Assembly (NCBI RefSeq): GCF_001999945.1 | Contig: NZ_CP019650.1 | Span: forward strand, 2,604,001-2,668,000 | DNA: 64,000 bases | DNA from: Microbulbifer agarilyticus | Lineage (GTDB): Bacteria; Pseudomonadota; Gammaproteobacteria; Pseudomonadales; Cellvibrionaceae | Reading direction: 5' to 3' | In this document: piece by piece, positions 41,300-48,856 of the stretch | How the letters are laid out: each line of letters opens with the position of its first letter | Numbering within the stretch: position 1 is the stretch's first letter | Notes under the pieces: generated by a model | The model's input: the letters and a program-made list of their open reading frames with translations, nothing else | What the model was told of the DNA's origin: nothing | Database searches by the model: none | Translations under genes and position numbers: made by a program

Positions 41300-42307
41300 C
41301 TATCTGGAAAACGCGGCCAGCGGGTGGGTAGTGGTGATCCCCATTTGCACGCGCGCACCGGGCTCCGCTTGGACTTCGTGGCTGGTGCGTACCTTGAGCT
41401 GCACGCCGTCACCAACTTGCACCGCATACAGGCGCGAGCAGCCCTCGTAGCGCACCCAATCCACCACACCATTGCCAATTTCAGATGGCACCAGAGACAA
41501 ATCATCTGGCCGCAACAGTAGATCAACCGCCCCACGGGCGTCATCGATCGGTATACCCGGTGCCGGGCCAAGTTCGGTGGTTACCTGGCGCCCATCGAGC
41601 ACGCCCGGGAGAAAGCTTGCCTCCCCCAGAAATCGAGCGACAAAACGGCTGGCGGGTTCGGCGAAGCATTTCTCCGGAGAGTCCAGCTGCTCCAACTTGC
41701 CACCATTGAGAATTCCCACCCGGTCACCAATTGAAAGTGCCTCTTCCTGATCGTGGGTCACCCAGATCGCGGGGATACCTGCAGCTTTGAGCGCCTCGCG
41801 GATTTCCCAGCGCAGGCTGTCTTTCAGCGCCGCATCCAAGTTGGACAGCGGCTCATCGAGGAGAATAAACGCCGGCTGGTGCGCAATGGTTCGAGCCAGC
41901 GCGACGCGCTGCTTCTGCCCACCGGACAGGCTGGCGGGCTTGGCCTGACGGAACGCTTCCAACCCCAACAGCTTCAACCAGTGGTCTGCCAGCGAAGTGT
42001 CTTTCAGGCGAAAGCACACATTTTCCTGCACGGTGAGGTGGGGAAACAGAGCGAAATCCTGAAACACCATGCCGACATTGCGTTTCTCTGGCGGTACCGG
42101 GCGCTTGGGGGTTGAGCTCCAGTTACCCAGTGAAATCTCACCCTCGGTTACCGGGATCAAACCTGCCAGCGCCTGCAGAATGGTGGTTTTGCCGCAGCCG
42201 GTCGGGCCGACAAGCATCAACACCTCATCCTTTCCCAGGGCGAGATTGAGATTGTCCACCACGCGCGTGGAACCGTAATCAACAGACAGGTTGCGAACGT
42301 TCAGCAT
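41300..42307 (-). CDS. fbpC: Iron(III) ABC transporter ATP-binding protein
   Basis: The ATPase of an FbpABC/SfuABC-type importer. Walker A is VGPTGCGKTT. The Q-loop (VFQDFALFPHL), signature LSGGQKQRVALART, Walker B AFILLDEPLSNLD and switch histidine WVTHDQEEAL are all intact. The last 100 residues form a TOBE-like regulatory domain (LLLRPDDLSLVPSE). Length is 335 residues. The ATG is eight bases after the fbpB stop. Confidence 0.93.
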   Translation of the reverse strand: MLNVRNLSVDYGSTRVVDNLNLALGKDEVLMLVGPTGCGKTTILQALAGLIPVTEGEISLGNWSSTPKRPVPPEKRNVGMVFQDFALFPHLTVQENVCFRLKDTSLADHWLKLLGLEAFRQAKPASLSGGQKQRVALARTIAHQPAFILLDEPLSNLDAALKDSLRWEIREALKAAGIPAIWVTHDQEEALSIGDRVGILNGGKLEQLDSPEKCFAEPASRFVARFLGEASFLPGVLDGRQVTTELGPAPGIPIDDARGAVDLLLRPDDLSLVPSEIGNGVVDWVRYEGCSRLYAVQVGDGVQLKVRTSHEVQAEPGARVQMGITTTHPLAAFSR

Positions 42308-42315
42308 TATCGCGA

Positions 42316-43827
42316 CTATTTTCCAGAAACTTCGAGTTCGGCCCGGCGCTCACCGGACAACATCAGCGCCAGCCCCAGTGCTGACATCAATACCAGTAAC
42401 AGGCCGGGAATGGCTGCGCGGCCAAAATACCCCGCTTCGTATACACGCCACAAGTAGGTAGCCAGGGTTTCGAACCCGGTGGGCCCCAACATCAGCGTGG
42501 CGGGCAGCTCCCGCATAGCCTCAAGGAACACCAGTGCGGCGCCGGCAATCATACCGCGCATGGTCAGCGGTAACGTAACCCGCTGAAACGCTTCCCGGGG
42601 GCTGGCCCCCAGTACACGCGCTGCCTTTACCAGGCTTGAATCCAAACCCTCGGCGGTTGAGCGCACAGAACTAACCGCCAGCGGCAAGAATCGCAATACG
42701 TAACACAGCACCAGCAAACCCAGAGTCTGGTACAGAAACGGCAGCTTCAGGCCGACATACACCAGTGCGGTACCCATTACGATACCCGGCACACCAAATC
42801 CAAAGTACGTCACTCGCTCCATGATACGGCCCGCGCGACCGGCAATGGCCGCGTGCGCGACCGGAATCGCGAGCACCACCGCACATGCCGCAGCCAGGAA
42901 CGAAGCGTGTACAGAGTTCCACGCATAGCGCAGGTCAAAACCAGCGTTGCCCTCGCGCGCAAGCCACACCGCGAAAATGGCGAGAGGCAACACTACCGCC
43001 AGCAGAATCACCGGGGAAACGGCCACACCAATCATCCAGCGCTGCCAGCTATTGGGCCAAAGCGTGAGGTGGCGGCCGGGTTTCTCACGGCTACCACGCA
43101 CTCGGGATTCCAAAAACAGCACTAACCCGACAATTGCCAGCAGCTGTAACGACAGCATCGCCGCCTGGCTCAAACCAAATGCGTTGTACTCGACAAAGAT
43201 CACCCTGGTGAAAGTATCCAGCCGCATAATCGCCGGCGTACCAAAATCAGACAGGGTATACAGGGCCACCAGTAATCCGCCGGCGGCAATTCCGGTGGCA
43301 ACACGGGGCAACACCACCTTGAGCAGGCTCATTTCGAGAGACATGCCCAACGTGCGCGCCGCGTTCACCAGGCTCGCATCCAGGCTCAGTAGAGAAGCGC
43401 GGGTGGTCAGCATCACGAACGGGTAAGAGTAGAGAATCATTACCAGCGAGGCGCCGAGCAAACCGTCCATAGCAGGCAGCGGAATACCCAGCAAATTGTG
43501 AATTTCACCACCACGGCCAAACGCCGCATAGATGGTAAACGCACCGATATAACTGGGGATAGCGAGCGGTGCGGCGAGAATCACCAGCCACAACCTGCGC
43601 ATGGGAAATTGCACGTAAGCGGTTACAAACGCCAATGGTACGCCGATCAGCACCGAGCCAAGTACGGTAAACACCATCAGCAGCAGTGTGTTGGTGAGAA
43701 CGCGCAAGTTGTGCGCGTCAAAAAACTGCGCCTCGCTCGCCGCGAGGTCGAACAACACTCCGATGGGCAGGATAGCCAGCAACGCAATCAGCGCGGCCAG
43801 CGGATAGGACCGGGGCCAGTGGGTCAT
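42316..43827 (-). CDS. fbpB: Iron(III) ABC transporter permease
   Basis: A 503-residue inner-membrane permease with about twelve hydrophobic segments in two homologous halves. Each half has an EAA-like loop (LVNAARTLGMSLEMSLLKVVLPRV in the first, LVKAARVLGASPREAFQRVTLPL in the second). This fused arrangement is the usual one for FbpB/SfuB, where one chain supplies the whole pore. The ATG overlaps the fbpA stop (ATGA). Confidence 0.93.
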   Translation of the reverse strand: MTHWPRSYPLAALIALLAILPIGVLFDLAASEAQFFDAHNLRVLTNTLLLMVFTVLGSVLIGVPLAFVTAYVQFPMRRLWLVILAAPLAIPSYIGAFTIYAAFGRGGEIHNLLGIPLPAMDGLLGASLVMILYSYPFVMLTTRASLLSLDASLVNAARTLGMSLEMSLLKVVLPRVATGIAAGGLLVALYTLSDFGTPAIMRLDTFTRVIFVEYNAFGLSQAAMLSLQLLAIVGLVLFLESRVRGSREKPGRHLTLWPNSWQRWMIGVAVSPVILLAVVLPLAIFAVWLAREGNAGFDLRYAWNSVHASFLAAACAVVLAIPVAHAAIAGRAGRIMERVTYFGFGVPGIVMGTALVYVGLKLPFLYQTLGLLVLCYVLRFLPLAVSSVRSTAEGLDSSLVKAARVLGASPREAFQRVTLPLTMRGMIAGAALVFLEAMRELPATLMLGPTGFETLATYLWRVYEAGYFGRAAIPGLLLVLMSALGLALMLSGERRAELEVSGK

Positions 43828-44882
43828 AACACCCCGGTACGACGCATCAGATTCAGGGTAGGACGCAAATCAGCCAGCTTGGTGAGATCCAGCTTGGGCG
43901 GAGAAATCTCACTCAGGGGAGGCAAGCCTTGCGGCGGCTGCACGCCATTGACGAGAGGAATCTCGTAGGCCTCACGCGCCAAGTAGGACTGCACTTCCCG
44001 CGTCAGCAAATAGCGGATGAAGTTGATCGGTAGATCCCCCTCGCTTAATGCCAGAATACCGGAGGCATTCACCAGGCAACCTGCGTCATTCTTGGTAAAT
44101 GCCAAGTCTACATTCGCATCGGGTTTGCCGGCTTTCAGGCGCAGGGTGTAATAGTGGTTGGCAAAACCGATATCCACTTCGCCGCGCTCCACGCCCATTA
44201 CCACGCCCAGCTCACCCGCATAGCTCTTGGCACGCTGGTTTACTCCGCGCAGCCAATCCGCCGTGGCTTTTTCGCCCTCAAGCAAACGCATGGCAGTGAC
44301 AAAGGATTGGAAGGAGGCATAAGCCGGCGCCCAGCCAATAGAAAAATCGCTATCCGCCAGCGCCATAACACTGTCCGGAATTTGCGCGCGCGTCACCCGC
44401 TCGGTGTTGTATGGAATGGTGCGGATGCGGCCAGTCACCGGTGCCCATTGCGGGTACTGGAATCCCGGGCGCAATTCTTCGGTAATATCAGCCGGCAGTG
44501 GTCGCGCTAGTCCCGCATCGGCGACAAGGCCAATGGCTCCGGAGTCTACCGCCCAAAACACATCTGCCCGCCGCACGCCCGCTTTGGACTCGGCAACAAT
44601 CGTATTGGCCAGCGCCGCAGTCACGCCGCGGCGGACCTGTAAATTAAACTTGGGGTTGCGCTTGCGAATAGCATCGAGGACGTTTTCGTAAAGGCCGCCC
44701 TCCCCCCGCCCCAGGTACAGGGTGAGATCCCCTTCCAAAGGCGGCAGTTGATCGACGGACACCGCATCCGGCCTTACACCTGCTACTTCAGATGCAAATG
44801 CAGGAAACGGCAGGGCCCCCAGGGCACCTGCCGCAGCAAAACTATTTAAACAGGCACTACGTAAAAAAGCTCTGCGCTGCAC
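43824..44882 (-). CDS. fbpA: Iron(III) ABC transporter substrate-binding protein with Tat-like signal
   Basis: A periplasmic iron-binding protein of the FbpA family (352 residues). The N terminus QRRAFLRSACLNSFAAAG fits the twin-arginine pattern RRxFLR, unlike the Sec signals of classical FbpA, and is followed by a hydrophobic stretch ending in ASA-like FPAFAS. Family features are DLTLYLGRGEGGLYENVL, the segment GVRRADVFWAVDSGAIG and the tyrosine pair in FANHYYTLRLK, likely iron ligands. The start is GTG. It is 112 bases after the unrecognised gene upstream. Confidence 0.9.
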   Translation of the reverse strand: MQRRAFLRSACLNSFAAAGALGALPFPAFASEVAGVRPDAVSVDQLPPLEGDLTLYLGRGEGGLYENVLDAIRKRNPKFNLQVRRGVTAALANTIVAESKAGVRRADVFWAVDSGAIGLVADAGLARPLPADITEELRPGFQYPQWAPVTGRIRTIPYNTERVTRAQIPDSVMALADSDFSIGWAPAYASFQSFVTAMRLLEGEKATADWLRGVNQRAKSYAGELGVVMGVERGEVDIGFANHYYTLRLKAGKPDANVDLAFTKNDAGCLVNASGILALSEGDLPINFIRYLLTREVQSYLAREAYEIPLVNGVQPPQGLPPLSEISPPKLDLTKLADLRPTLNLMRRTGVL

Positions 44883-44994: not shown

Positions 44995-45813
44995 TTAAAA
45001 AACGTCCTTGCGTTTTTTCTCTGCGGCAGCCACCAGGTCCTTCGCACGATCCAGTTTCGCTTGCATGGATTCAACCACCTTGCGCACATCATCAACACTG
45101 GACTTACCATCAATGGCCTGCGGCAAGGTTACGTTGAAGTCTTTTTCCAGGTCTTCCACCAGATCCGCATCCTGTTCGATCAGAACACCTTCAACACCTT
45201 CAAAGCGATGCAGGTAAGTGTCGTGAACGATACTGGTGGCGGCTTCCGGCAGTTTCTCTGCGTATTTGGCGACCACGCGATCCAGGCGGTGTTTAATGTC
45301 GTCCAGGGTCTCAGGCACCGTGCTGGGCTCGGCTTCAGTGGTTTGGACCTTGGCTACCAGTCCTTTTTCCTGATACTGGGAAGCCAACTTAACTGCGCCC
45401 AGCGCCTGCCAAAGGGCCTGATTCAGCTTGCTTTGCTCTTCACGCACTTTGGCAATCGGTGCGCCGGCATCAATTGCCTGTTTTACACCGAAAATACCCT
45501 GCCAGATATTGGCATATACCGGTACATAGCTGGTTTCGATGGCGGAGTGGAAATCAACCTCTTCCCAGTACTCGAGCATCGCATTGGTATTGGTGCCCTT
45601 TTGTCCTTTCTCTTCGTAAGTGTCGACGACAGCGCCAAACTTACCGACCAGCCAGTTCACTTCTTCGGAGTACTGCCCGAGGTGCGACTTCAGATCATTC
45701 ACGTGATCGCCGATTTCCCCGTTCGCGGAAACCTGGCCGGCACCTAGCAGTGCCACAAGACCCAAAACCATGCCGAAATTGCGAGGCTGGCGGAAAAAAG
45801 ATTTAGCTTGCAT
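44995..45813 (-). CDS. Unrecognised secreted helical protein under a Fur box
   Basis: I do not recognise this 272-residue protein. A signal peptide ends near VSANG (about residue 29). The mature part appears all-helical and charged, with HVNDLKSHLGQYSEEVNWL, FHSAIETSYVPVYANIWQG and a C-terminal KLDRAKDLVAAAEKKRKDVF. There are no cysteines and few aromatics in the second half. The helical style recalls imelysin/EfeO iron-binding domains, but the GxHxxE motif is not present (only FHSAIE), so I make no assignment. A Fur box lies 43-61 bases before the ATG, and fbpABC follows in the same direction. An iron-related role is therefore likely. Confidence 0.75.
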   Translation of the reverse strand: MQAKSFFRQPRNFGMVLGLVALLGAGQVSANGEIGDHVNDLKSHLGQYSEEVNWLVGKFGAVVDTYEEKGQKGTNTNAMLEYWEEVDFHSAIETSYVPVYANIWQGIFGVKQAIDAGAPIAKVREEQSKLNQALWQALGAVKLASQYQEKGLVAKVQTTEAEPSTVPETLDDIKHRLDRVVAKYAEKLPEAATSIVHDTYLHRFEGVEGVLIEQDADLVEDLEKDFNVTLPQAIDGKSSVDDVRKVVESMQAKLDRAKDLVAAAEKKRKDVF

Positions 45814-45855
45814 GAATTCCCACTCTCTTTTGCGTTTCTTTATTACAGACTGTGC

Positions 45856-45874
45856 GCAAATGATACTCATTATC
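45856..45874 (-). promoter_or_regulatory. Fur box upstream of the secreted iron-related gene
   Basis: The 19 bases GCAAATGATACTCATTATC (plus strand) match the palindromic Fur consensus at 16 positions. A candidate minus-strand -10 (TATCAT) lies inside the box with TTTATT about 17 bases before it, so bound Fur would block RNA polymerase. The remaining gap up to 46173 holds no recognised feature apart from a possible TATAGT -10 (46166-46171) for the cyclase gene. Confidence 0.85.
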
Positions 45875-46173: not shown

Positions 46174-47751
46174 GTGTCCCGGCTCCCAGAGTCACACGAC
46201 CAACAAGTATTAACTAGAGCGCGTCCGTTGATCACCAAGACCAAAGACAACTTGCGAATACTCGTCCGCGGTCTGCAGGTGCGCCTGGCTCGGCTGTTGC
46301 CGCGCCATGTCCCCATCGCGCTCAAGCTGGCACTGGTCATGACGCTTCTTCTGGTGGTGGGAATGACCGGCCTGGGCCTGGTCATTAGCGACAATCAAAA
46401 TCAACTGATCCGCACCCAGCTGGACGAATTTGGCAACGCCATGGCGCTACAACTCGCCAAGCAGGCCAGCGAACCCATTCTCTCCGAGAATGGACTCAAC
46501 CTGCAGATGCTCACCAGTAACCTGGGGCAAGAAGAAAAGATTCTGGGCGCCGCCATTTATTCCCACGACGGCCAACCGCTCTCTGGTACCGGACGCCTGC
46601 CGGACCTGGGCAAAACACTATTTGAATCCAGCACCGTGATCGCCCACCCGTGGTTTGGCGCGGATGAAAATGGCAACAGCGAGCGGCTAATCAGCTTTAT
46701 CGCGCCCGCCACCTATCAGGGCGTTCGGGCCGGCTCGGTAGTTATTACCCTGTCTGCCTCGCTGATGGACCAGGCTGCGACCGAGGCCCGCAACGCCGTT
46801 ATTTACGCCACACTGGCGATGACTCTGCTGGCCTCCCTTTTCTCCTACTGGCTCAGCCGCAGACTCTCCCTGCCGATTCACCATTTAATGAAGGCCACAG
46901 AGGCGATCGGCCGTGGCGACCTTGCCACGCGCATTGATCAGCGCCGCAATGATGAACTCGGCTACCTGTTCGAGGGCTTCAACAACATGGCCGCGGGATT
47001 GCTGAAGAAATCCCAGGTGGAGCAGGTATTTTCCCGCTACGTATCAAAAAGTGTCGCCGACAAGGTACTGGCCAACCTGGACGAAGTCCGCTTGGTGGAC
47101 CGCCCCATCGAGGCAACCGTACTGTTTGCCGACATCAGCGGCTTCACCGCGATGTCGGAAAAGCTGGAACCGAGCCAGGTCTCTAGTCTACTTAACGAAT
47201 ACTTCTCTCATATTTCCCACGCCTGTGCGTTACACGGCGGTGTGGTCGATAAATTTATCGGCGACTGCGCCATGCTGGTGTTCGGCGTTGGCGAAGATGA
47301 TTCAGACCACGCATTTAACGCGGTGAGCTGTGGTGTACTGATTCAGCAATTGGCGGCAGAGTTAAATGAGCAACGTGCTGCAGATGGCAAGCCAGGGGTG
47401 CACTTCCGTATCGGCATCAATTCCGGCACTATGCTGGCCGGTAATCTGGGTTCTGATGATCGGATGGAATACACCGTTGTCGGTGATGCGGTGAATCTGG
47501 CCTCTCGCCTGTGCAGTGAGGCCGAGCCCGATCAGGTCATTATTCGCGAGCAACTGCACGATAGCCTGCAACCCCGGATTGTGGCTCAAGCGGGCCAGTG
47601 TATTAAGATCCGCGGCAAATCGACACCGGTGCAAATCTACACCGTGGATGATCTATCTAAAGAAGGGAAATCGCAGCTGCGCAGTCATTTAAATACATTG
47701 CGCAACAGCTGTAACACACAGCAGGATGAAAAAAACGTCGCCCATGCTTAA
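46174..47751 (+). CDS. Membrane class III adenylate/guanylate cyclase with HAMP
   Basis: A 525-residue inner-membrane protein. Two membrane segments (about 50-72 and 208-228) flank a periplasmic domain of some 135 residues. A HAMP segment follows (PIHHLMKATEAIGRGDLATRI), then a short linker and the cyclase domain. Metal-binding Asp residues lie in VLFADISGFTAMS and KFIGDCAMLVFG. The transition-state Asn/Arg are in VVGDAVNLASRLCS. The product, cAMP or cGMP, cannot be decided by eye. The start is uncertain (GTG listed; a TTG at 46228 lies after a TATAGT promoter-like element). The 3' end overlaps the lipoprotein gene. Confidence 0.88.
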   Translation: MSRLPESHDQQVLTRARPLITKTKDNLRILVRGLQVRLARLLPRHVPIALKLALVMTLLLVVGMTGLGLVISDNQNQLIRTQLDEFGNAMALQLAKQASEPILSENGLNLQMLTSNLGQEEKILGAAIYSHDGQPLSGTGRLPDLGKTLFESSTVIAHPWFGADENGNSERLISFIAPATYQGVRAGSVVITLSASLMDQAATEARNAVIYATLAMTLLASLFSYWLSRRLSLPIHHLMKATEAIGRGDLATRIDQRRNDELGYLFEGFNNMAAGLLKKSQVEQVFSRYVSKSVADKVLANLDEVRLVDRPIEATVLFADISGFTAMSEKLEPSQVSSLLNEYFSHISHACALHGGVVDKFIGDCAMLVFGVGEDDSDHAFNAVSCGVLIQQLAAELNEQRAADGKPGVHFRIGINSGTMLAGNLGSDDRMEYTVVGDAVNLASRLCSEAEPDQVIIREQLHDSLQPRIVAQAGQCIKIRGKSTPVQIYTVDDLSKEGKSQLRSHLNTLRNSCNTQQDEKNVAHA

Positions 47752-48856
47752 CCCGCGAATAACACTCAAGCGGTTATTCCTTCGCCTCTCGATAGCGGCA
47801 CTACTCCCTGCCTGCAGCCTGGTACCGACCTCTCAACCAACACTCGAAAGTTTTCCTGCGGAAACCGCACAGCTCGTTCGCCAGCAATCGGCCGAGCTCG
47901 AACAGCTGCAAAGCCTCAACTCCCCTTCACCGTCTCAACAGACTCAAGAGCGACAATTGCGCCGCGCGCTGCAGCGTTTTGAACGAGAGGTATTGGAATC
48001 TGCAAGCCGGCTCGAGAAAAAAAATGAATGGTATCGCGCAGCTCAGCAGTTCGAAGGTGCTATCAGTGTCTTACCCAACAGTCCGGTGCTCACGGCCGCC
48101 TATGGTGAATTTCAAGAGCGCCGCAAACTGCGAGGAGAACGTGTCCGCATGGAAATCGCGATCCACCAGGGTGAGCAACTGTTAAAAGACATTGATGCAT
48201 ACAAACGCTTGCAACAACTGCAAGGGCGCGATGTATTGACCTGGGTGGAGCTAAAGAATTTCAACCGCAAGCGACGCGCCTCTGCCGAGGAACTGCAAAA
48301 GTACGCAGAACTGGCGTTACTGAGAAAAGATTACGGTTTGGCCCAGAGCGGCCTGAAAGTAGCCAAAGCCTTGTACAGCGACGATCTTGCACAAGATGAT
48401 GAAAGCCAAGAACGGCTGGAACAAAACCTCGCCGAAGCCAACCGCCAACTGCGTAAGCGAAACCCTCGGCGTACAAAAGTAGTAGCACGCAAACCGTCGC
48501 CCCCCACAAAAGTGCAGCCCATCCCTACAGATGAGTTAGAGCGGACACTGGCTAACGGCGACCTCCCCAGCGCACGCCAACAGCTCACAGAGCTGGAACA
48601 ACAGGCTCCTGATCACCCGCAACTTGAAGCTCTACAGGCACGCTTTGATTTCATGTTGAACGCACGGCTGGAGTCCGCTCTACAGCGGGGCAACGAGCTG
48701 TACAGTCAGGGGGACATCGAACAGGCACTGGCCGTATGGCGAGAGGCGCACAACTTCGCGCCAGAAAACATGGAGTTGCGCGGCAACATCAGCCGCGCGG
48801 AAAGAGTGCTGGAAAATCTGAGAGCGCTGACCACCCCCAACGGTGCCAAACCCTAA
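47726..48856 (+). CDS. Lipoprotein with TPR-like repeats
   Basis: A 376-residue exported lipoprotein with a lipobox LLPAC at residues 26-30. After a polar linker comes helical sequence with TPR-like character, clearest at the C terminus (NELYSQGDIEQALAVWREAHNFAPENMELRG) and around WYRAAQQFEGAISVLPNSPVL. A basic, proline-containing hinge (RRTKVVARKPSPPTK) divides the two halves. The first ATG overlaps the cyclase gene by 26 bases, and the ATG at 47744 would overlap by eight. It is probably a partner of the cyclase or of cell-wall machinery. No exact family is recognised. Confidence 0.8.
   Translation: MKKTSPMLNPRITLKRLFLRLSIAALLPACSLVPTSQPTLESFPAETAQLVRQQSAELEQLQSLNSPSPSQQTQERQLRRALQRFEREVLESASRLEKKNEWYRAAQQFEGAISVLPNSPVLTAAYGEFQERRKLRGERVRMEIAIHQGEQLLKDIDAYKRLQQLQGRDVLTWVELKNFNRKRRASAEELQKYAELALLRKDYGLAQSGLKVAKALYSDDLAQDDESQERLEQNLAEANRQLRKRNPRRTKVVARKPSPPTKVQPIPTDELERTLANGDLPSARQQLTELEQQAPDHPQLEALQARFDFMLNARLESALQRGNELYSQGDIEQALAVWREAHNFAPENMELRGNISRAERVLENLRALTTPNGAKP

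What the first reader, a model, noticed from the sequence alone, without database searches (positions are those of the whole stretch)
44995..45874. Unrecognised secreted protein under a Fur box leads an fbpABC iron importer
Seen: a 16/19 match to the Fur consensus, a new-looking 272-residue exported helical protein, then fbpA, fbpB and fbpC in the same direction. Known: Fur represses iron uptake genes when iron is plentiful, and FbpABC usually has no fourth component. Inference: the unknown protein could be an extra periplasmic iron carrier or delivery factor for the importer. This is the window's best candidate for an undescribed system.
Basis: partly seen in the sequence, partly recalled or inferred. 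Interest (0 to 1): 0.75.

Follow-up and report, generated by a model that had tools for sequence, protein, structure and literature searches.

The report
FTR1-like fourth subunit of iron importer
A marine bacterium's iron(III) importer travels with a fixed fourth, periplasmic protein that shares a four-helix domain with FTR1, an unrelated kind of iron permease, and it probably hands iron to the importer.

Summary
Observation confirmed: a 272-residue exported helical protein (44995-45813, minus strand) lies under a 16/19 Fur box, directly upstream of fbpA, fbpB and fbpC. The genome is a Microbulbifer. No Pfam or NCBIfam family claims the protein.

Two findings go further. First, its C-terminal half (168-267) is homologous to the periplasmic four-helix domain of FTR1 iron permeases: hhalign probability 98.5, against at most 0.7 in 50 column-shuffled controls; Y200 and F204-E205-x-x-E208 are the same in 29 of 29 family members and 10 of 10 FTR1s. 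Second, it is a nearly obligate part of one FbpABC subfamily: beside fbpB in 26 of 26 carriers among 96 relatives and 44 of 45 Alteromonas carriers, with the four-gene order kept in 9 of 9 carriers among 369 gammaproteobacteria, down to 33% identity.

In Microbulbifer, operon and long FTR1 gene largely exclude each other (FTR1 in 2 of 23 carriers, 24 of 25 non-carriers); Alteromonas does not show this.

Best reading: a soluble FTR1-type iron-transfer module reused as delivery subunit of an Fe(III) ABC importer. Iron binding, partner binding and iron-dependent expression are untested.

The parts
45856..45874 (.). Fur-like box, 16/19, before the first gene of the unit
   Evidence: Only site within 3 mismatches in the window; none in 100 shuffles. 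At least 14/19 in 37 of 45 usable rows.
44995..45813 (-). Leader gene: 272-aa exported helical protein, the fourth subunit
   Evidence: full-length relatives in 26 of 96 related genomes.
45724..45813 (-). Signal peptide, residues 1-30 (by eye)
   Evidence: Read from the translation; low model confidence for residues 1-33.
45349..45711 (-). N-terminal helical half, residues 35-155, with invariant W83, V86, H89, A91, E93, Y100, I103, W104
   Evidence: 29 of 29; helices in the model. Homology to FTR1 not shown.
45001..45318 (-). C-terminal four-helix domain, residues 166-271, homologous to the membrane-proximal periplasmic domain of FTR1 permeases
   Evidence: hhalign 98.5 (whole protein) and 98.8 (C half); model pLDDT 92.9, pTM 0.84.
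45190..45204 (-). F204-E205-x-x-E208 motif shared with FTR1
   Evidence: 29 of 29 family members and 10 of 10 FTR1 sequences.
43824..44882 (-). fbpA: ferric-binding substrate-binding protein with twin-arginine signal and NHYY motif
   Evidence: both features in 31 of 31 relatives examined.
42316..43827 (-). fbpB: ABC permease
41300..42307 (-). fbpC: ABC ATPase with TOBE domain

Best explanation
The protein is the fourth, periplasmic subunit of an iron(III) ABC importer. Shown by sequence: an export signal, first place in a conserved four-gene unit, a conserved Fur-like box, and a C-terminal half homologous to the helical domain that FTR1 iron permeases hold in the periplasm just before their membrane part. 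Inferred: when iron is scarce Fur releases the unit; the protein takes up iron that has reached the periplasm, using acidic and histidine residues (E205/E208, D215, E223 in the C domain; H89/E93 in the N domain), and passes it to the twin-arginine-exported FbpA, which carries it to FbpB/FbpC for ATP-driven import. In FTR1 permeases the same domain would feed iron to the membrane channel; here it has been uncoupled and serves an ABC importer. The invariant -VF end lies where FTR1 runs into the membrane and may be the docking end.
For: Homology: weak direct matches to four FTR1 frames in the genus and six more in the phylum, all read as FTR1 permeases; hhalign 98.5 for the whole protein against 0.1 (reversed) and at most 0.7 (50 column shuffles), 98.8 for the C half, 97.1 against a second type of FTR1 repeat; shared invariant residues. 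Linkage: 26 of 26 carriers among 96 relatives, 44 of 45 among 59 Alteromonas genomes, 9 of 9 among 369 class genomes with the order kept, 32 of 33 named-contig loci. FbpA at 57% or more in exactly the same 9 class genomes. Fur box kept in 37 of 45 rows. FbpA is an iron-binding type and always has a twin-arginine signal. In Microbulbifer the operon and the long FTR1 gene largely exclude each other. A putative Fe(III) ABC system is among transcripts raised under iron limitation in A. macleodii (PMC7190382 section 6).
Against: No binding, uptake or expression data for this protein. The FTR1 domain's own function is not established either, so homology gives context, not a mechanism. The N half has no shown homologue. 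No solved structure matches. The exclusion with FTR1 rests on about three independent events, too few for significance, and fails in Alteromonas. PMC7190382 does not name the locus tags of its Fe(III) ABC system in the text I saw, and I did not check that ATCC 27126 has this unit. One Alteromonas genome keeps the gene without fbpABC beside it.
Confidence: 0.55

Rival explanations
1. It is a dedicated assembly or stability factor for FbpA or the FbpBC complex: it binds the exported FbpA or the permease and keeps it competent, without carrying iron.
For: One-to-one linkage with this FbpABC subfamily; invariant VF carboxyl end that looks like a contact site; FbpA uses a twin-arginine signal in 31 of 31.
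Against: Does not explain why the C half is the domain of an iron permease that has no FbpA, nor the kept acidic ExxE and H/E residues.
Confidence: 0.22
2. It is a periplasmic redox or iron-release factor: it helps strip, reduce or oxidise iron before FbpA takes it.
For: In the Microbulbifer FTR1 read by Pfam the related domain sits next to a cytochrome c domain, and redox steps are proposed for FTR1-type systems (PMC10783030 passages).
Against: No cysteine after the signal region and no haem motif in the family, no match to a redox family; no redox partner in the unit.
Confidence: 0.13
3. It is an imelysin/EfeO (peptidase M75) type iron protein that has diverged beyond recognition.
For: Two-bundle helical layout, an H89-x-x-x-E93 motif, and the EfeO-like protein Algp7 (5y4c) at rank 23 of the fold list.
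Against: No Pfam match to imelysin/M75 at E up to 1; 5y4c scores E 3.7 with TM 0.26/0.28; the spacing is not the GxHxxE described in PMC3143127 (passages); the C half has a clear FTR1 homologue instead.
Confidence: 0.04

Closest known systems
FbpABC/HitABC/SfuABC iron(III) ABC importers
   Same: Binding protein of the ferric type, two-part permease, ATPase, Fur-like box.
   Different: A fixed fourth, periplasmic subunit, and a binding protein with a twin-arginine signal. That classical FbpA proteins use ordinary signals is recalled.
FTR1-family iron permeases (FetM, cFtr1, EfeU; PF03239)
   Same: The C-terminal domain is homologous to their membrane-proximal periplasmic domain.
   Different: No FTR1 membrane part, no PF03239 match and no REGLE motif in this protein; partner is an ABC importer.
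P19/FetP, periplasmic iron protein of the FetMP system
   Same: A periplasmic iron-handling protein encoded with its importer under Fur (PMC10783030, passages).
   Different: No Pfam match to it at E up to 1; all-helical model here.
EfeO/EfeM and imelysin-like proteins (M75)
   Same: Periplasmic helical iron-uptake proteins with two four-helix bundles (PMC9174327 and PMC3143127, passages).
   Different: No sequence match, no significant fold match, no GxHxxE.

Membership tests
FbpABC ferric ABC importer | Ferric-type binding protein with a tyrosine pair | tested here: met
   7w3w at E 3.6e-45; NHYY in 31 of 31 relatives; that this pair binds iron is recalled.
FbpABC ferric ABC importer | Permease and ATPase genes adjoining on the same strand | tested here: met
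FbpABC ferric ABC importer | Iron transport activity | not testable with these tools
   Needs uptake assays.
FTR1 iron permease | PF03239 membrane domain with REXXE motif | tested here: not met
   No PF03239 match; none in the whole genome of the window either. So the protein is not an FTR1 permease.
FTR1 iron permease | Membrane-proximal periplasmic helical domain | tested here: met
   hhalign 98.5/98.8 with controls at 0.7 or less; shared residues.
Imelysin/EfeO (M75) | Peptidase_M75 profile match | tested here: not met
   No such match at E up to 1.
Imelysin/EfeO (M75) | GxHxxE motif | tested here: not met
   The conserved element is H89-x-x-x-E93.
Imelysin/EfeO (M75) | Double four-helix-bundle fold of that type | tested here: inconclusive
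   Model pTM 0.60; Algp7 at E 3.7.
Fur regulon | Fur box at the promoter, conserved in relatives | tested here: met
   weaker (11-13/19) in 8 of 45 rows.
Fur regulon | Iron-dependent expression | not tested
   Only an indirect statement for A. macleodii (PMC7190382 section 6).

The most novel reading that the evidence does not exclude
The helical domain of FTR1 permeases is a portable periplasmic iron-transfer module. In this FbpABC subfamily it exists as a separate soluble protein that loads a twin-arginine-exported FbpA, so one delivery device serves two unrelated importers, a permease and an ABC transporter, and one importer has repeatedly stood in for the other in Microbulbifer.
Probability: 0.4. 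Interest if true: 0.72.

Novelty: new variant of a known kind. Interest (0 to 1): 0.57.

Why it matters
How iron passes from the periplasm into inner-membrane importers, and what the large periplasmic part of FTR1 permeases does, is to my knowledge poorly understood. Here that part occurs as a small soluble protein with a fixed partner and no membrane domain, so its iron binding, partner contact and effect on uptake can be measured directly. It also corrects the three-part picture of FbpABC for Alteromonas, Pseudoalteromonas and Microbulbifer, and would let annotators name a protein recorded as hypothetical in the five plasmid records found.

Tried and rejected
Sequence families: Pfam and NCBIfam gave only chance matches for the leader protein, and PDB sequence searches likewise. 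Fold searches gave generic four-helix bundles (NarX sensor, PsbQ, YppE) without significance; best E 0.61 for the full model and 0.067 for the C domain.

N-terminal half as a second FTR1 repeat: plausible by layout, not shown. Probabilities were 7.5 and 9.6 against the two FTR1 segments, 37.3 against its own C half (10.1 with the C half reversed, at most 2.6 shuffled), and 22-32 against wider repeat sets. A hit of the N half in an Alteromonas genome (578-aa open frame, E 3.5e-5) is, by eye, a chemotaxis receptor; profile comparison rejected it (at most 0.3), a reminder that E-values near 1e-5 between helical proteins mean little alone.

FTR1 replacement as a general rule: rejected; Alteromonas does not show it. 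Shorter FTR1-family frames (271-280 aa, one of 492) in 8 of the 23 Microbulbifer carriers were not counted as the long form. The Fur-like boxes before four long FTR1 genes (13-15/19) are no better than the best local control in 3 of 4 loci.

Rows dropped or counted as misses: L005 was read on the wrong strand and is left out. L061 is a metagenome contig whose gene breaks after residue 141 into unrelated sequence; I read it as a chimera and count it as the miss of 33. The tree used 37 of the 48 Microbulbifer genomes, because one search returned only those. The FbpA check was given 21 of the 33 named-contig loci plus 10 others. Of the five plasmid hits I opened two. Two pairs among the 10 FTR1 sequences (L029/L030, L135/L136) are near copies.

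Literature: the papers listed (in several only the top of a longer list) include none that I recognised as describing a stand-alone FTR1-type periplasmic protein beside fbpABC. Passages of PMC10783030, PMC9174327, PMC7190382, PMC8776838, PMC6083913 and PMC3143127 were seen, and section 6 of PMC7190382 was read; no paper was read whole.

Full report
What is there. On the minus strand a 272-residue protein (44995-45813) is followed by fbpA, fbpB and fbpC. A Fur-like box lies 42 bases before its start codon and is the only site within three mismatches in the window; none of 100 shuffles had one. FbpA matches solved ferric-binding proteins, best E 3.6e-45; FbpB and FbpC match permease and ATPase families. 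No terminator-like site lies between the first two genes on the minus strand, and the unit ends after fbpC. The nearest named genomes found are Microbulbifer agarilyticus, with 97% identity for the protein.

What the protein is. Pfam and NCBIfam do not know it. A search of 96 relatives gave 26 full matches. It also gave four weak ones (E from 1e-5 to 0.0095), all within residues 157-262 and all in open frames of 647-667 aa. These frames read as FTR1 permeases whose periplasmic part holds a cytochrome c motif and, next to the membrane, a helical segment; PF03239 and PF00034 were confirmed for one of them, L029, and PF03239 for L135. A profile search of 398 phylum genomes gave six full-length relatives, all in the class, and six weak matches (E 1.9e-7 to 9.7e-4) in frames of 639-709 aa, all six read as FTR1 permeases. 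Profile-profile comparison aligned residues 168-267 with the FTR1 segment at probability 98.5 (whole protein) and 98.8 (C half). For the whole protein the reversed segment gave 0.1 and the best of 50 column shuffles 0.7. A second type of FTR1 repeat (L135, L136) gave 97.1.

Shared residues and models. In a joint alignment A192, Y200, F204, E205, E208 and E223 are the same in 29 of 29 family members and 10 of 10 FTR1s, and D215 in 27 of 29 and 9 of 10; two pairs of the ten FTR1s are near copies. The C domain is predicted as a four-helix bundle (best of five models pLDDT 92.9, pTM 0.84; the others 62-90). The full model is less sure (best pLDDT 80.0, pTM 0.60; the others 57-65). No solved structure matches either at E 0.001. 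Whether the N half is a second, diverged copy is open. It has its own invariant residues, among them W83, V86, H89, A91, E93, Y100, I103 and W104, and the protein ends in V-F in 29 of 29.

How firmly it belongs to the importer. In 96 relatives the gene and an fbpB at 72% or more occur in the same 26 genomes, always on one contig and strand, 1038-1171 bases apart. In 369 class genomes 9 have the gene, and exactly those 9 have an FbpA at 57% or more; the next best FbpA is 38%, in a genome without the gene. The eight loci fetched besides the window have the same four-gene order, although the first protein falls to 33% identity. In Alteromonas 45 of 59 genomes have the gene. An fbpB at 68% or more is in 44 of 59, and all 44 have it 1044-1071 bases from the gene. 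The exception, G860, keeps the gene with a different end and no fbpABC in the 14 kb around it. Of 33 loci from named genome contigs 32 have all four genes; the miss is a contig whose gene breaks off. Five Pseudoalteromonas plasmid records carry the gene as a hypothetical protein, and the two I opened have the same order. These samples overlap in part and many members are close relatives.

The partner. In 31 of 31 loci examined FbpA starts with a twin-arginine stretch (a strict pattern caught 28; three were read by eye), and all 31 have NHYY. Export in the folded state would leave FbpA to be loaded with iron afterwards, which would give a delivery protein a task; that step is inference.

Regulation. 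The box scores 14/19 or better in 37 of 45 usable rows, against local control means of 8.9-11.2. The six most divergent loci score 11-13, within the range of local controls for most; four of them share AAAATGAGTTTT in sites that begin 113-130 bases before the aligned start. PMC7190382 (section 6 and passages) lists a putative Fe(III) ABC system among transcripts raised under iron limitation in A. macleodii, without locus tags in the text I saw.

Relation to FTR1. Of 48 Microbulbifer genomes 23 have the operon and 25 do not. A long FTR1 (open frames of 647-720 aa) is in 2 of the 23 and 24 of the 25 (Fisher p 3e-10, which ignores kinship). The window's own genome has no FTR1-family match at E 1e-5, and eight carriers have only or also shorter FTR1-family frames. 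On a guaA tree of 37 of these genomes the operon needs 3 changes and FTR1 needs 5. There are three independent pairs; on average over 200 pairings 2.1 go opposite ways and 0.0 the same way, and three pairs cannot reach significance. That tree has 10 open forks and a few long branches. In the four loci inspected FTR1 stands near a leuA-like gene with no other iron genes that I recognised by eye. A Fur-like box of 13-15/19 lies 62-66 bases upstream of FTR1 in all four, but equals the best local control in three. In Alteromonas the pattern fails: 13 of 14 genomes without the operon have no FTR1, and one genome with the operon has two.

How it most likely works. Shown by sequence: export signal, fixed membership of the unit, Fur-like box, domain homology to an iron permease. 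Inferred: the protein binds iron in the periplasm through conserved acidic residues and histidine, docks on FbpA or FbpB, perhaps by its VF end, and hands iron over. In the Fet system a periplasmic iron protein, FetP, cooperates with and contacts the FTR1-type permease FetM (PMC10783030 passages), so a periplasmic hand-over step is in keeping with that family. The main rivals are an assembly or stability role for FbpA and a redox or release role. I give the delivery role 0.55.

Novelty. The ABC importer and the FTR1 domain are each of known kinds. Their combination as a stand-alone fourth subunit appeared in none of the papers listed so far as their titles, abstracts and the passages seen show. 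I file it as a new variant of a known kind.

Noticed in passing
L139 5333-7285, L140 4665-6608, L141 4751-6679, L142 1319-3235: A cytochrome c-FTR1 fusion stands near a leuA-like gene in Microbulbifer with no P19-like or other iron gene recognised by eye beside it: possibly a one-gene iron importer.
   Followed up: partly
L135 1411-3303, L136 1408-3303: These FTR1 permeases carry what read as three tandem helical repeats and no cytochrome, so the domain seems to be a repeat unit.
   Followed up: partly
L183 6031-6840: An Alteromonas genome keeps the leader gene with a changed end and without fbpABC next to it, beside genes that look like suf genes.
   Followed up: partly
L061 1100-1400: In a MAG labelled Euryhalocaulis the leader gene runs into unrelated sequence in mid-gene; probably a chimeric contig.
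   Followed up: partly
L106, L107, L110, L111 upstream of the leader gene: A shared AAAATGAGTTTT stretch where closer relatives have the Fur box: perhaps a diverged Fur site.
   Followed up: no
L106, L107, L110, L111, start of FbpA: After the twin-arginine stretch these FbpA proteins have a GC(S/Y) sequence that looks like a lipoprotein site, so FbpA may be anchored there.
   Followed up: no
window 46174-47751 and 47726-48856: Divergently oriented from the unit lie a membrane protein that looks like a HAMP-cyclase and a lipoprotein-like helical protein (by eye); the first also adjoins the leader gene in many Microbulbifer loci.
   Followed up: no
L068, L069: In Pseudoalteromonas the unit lies on 0.8-Mb secondary replicons, once near a TonB-dependent receptor.
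   Followed up: no
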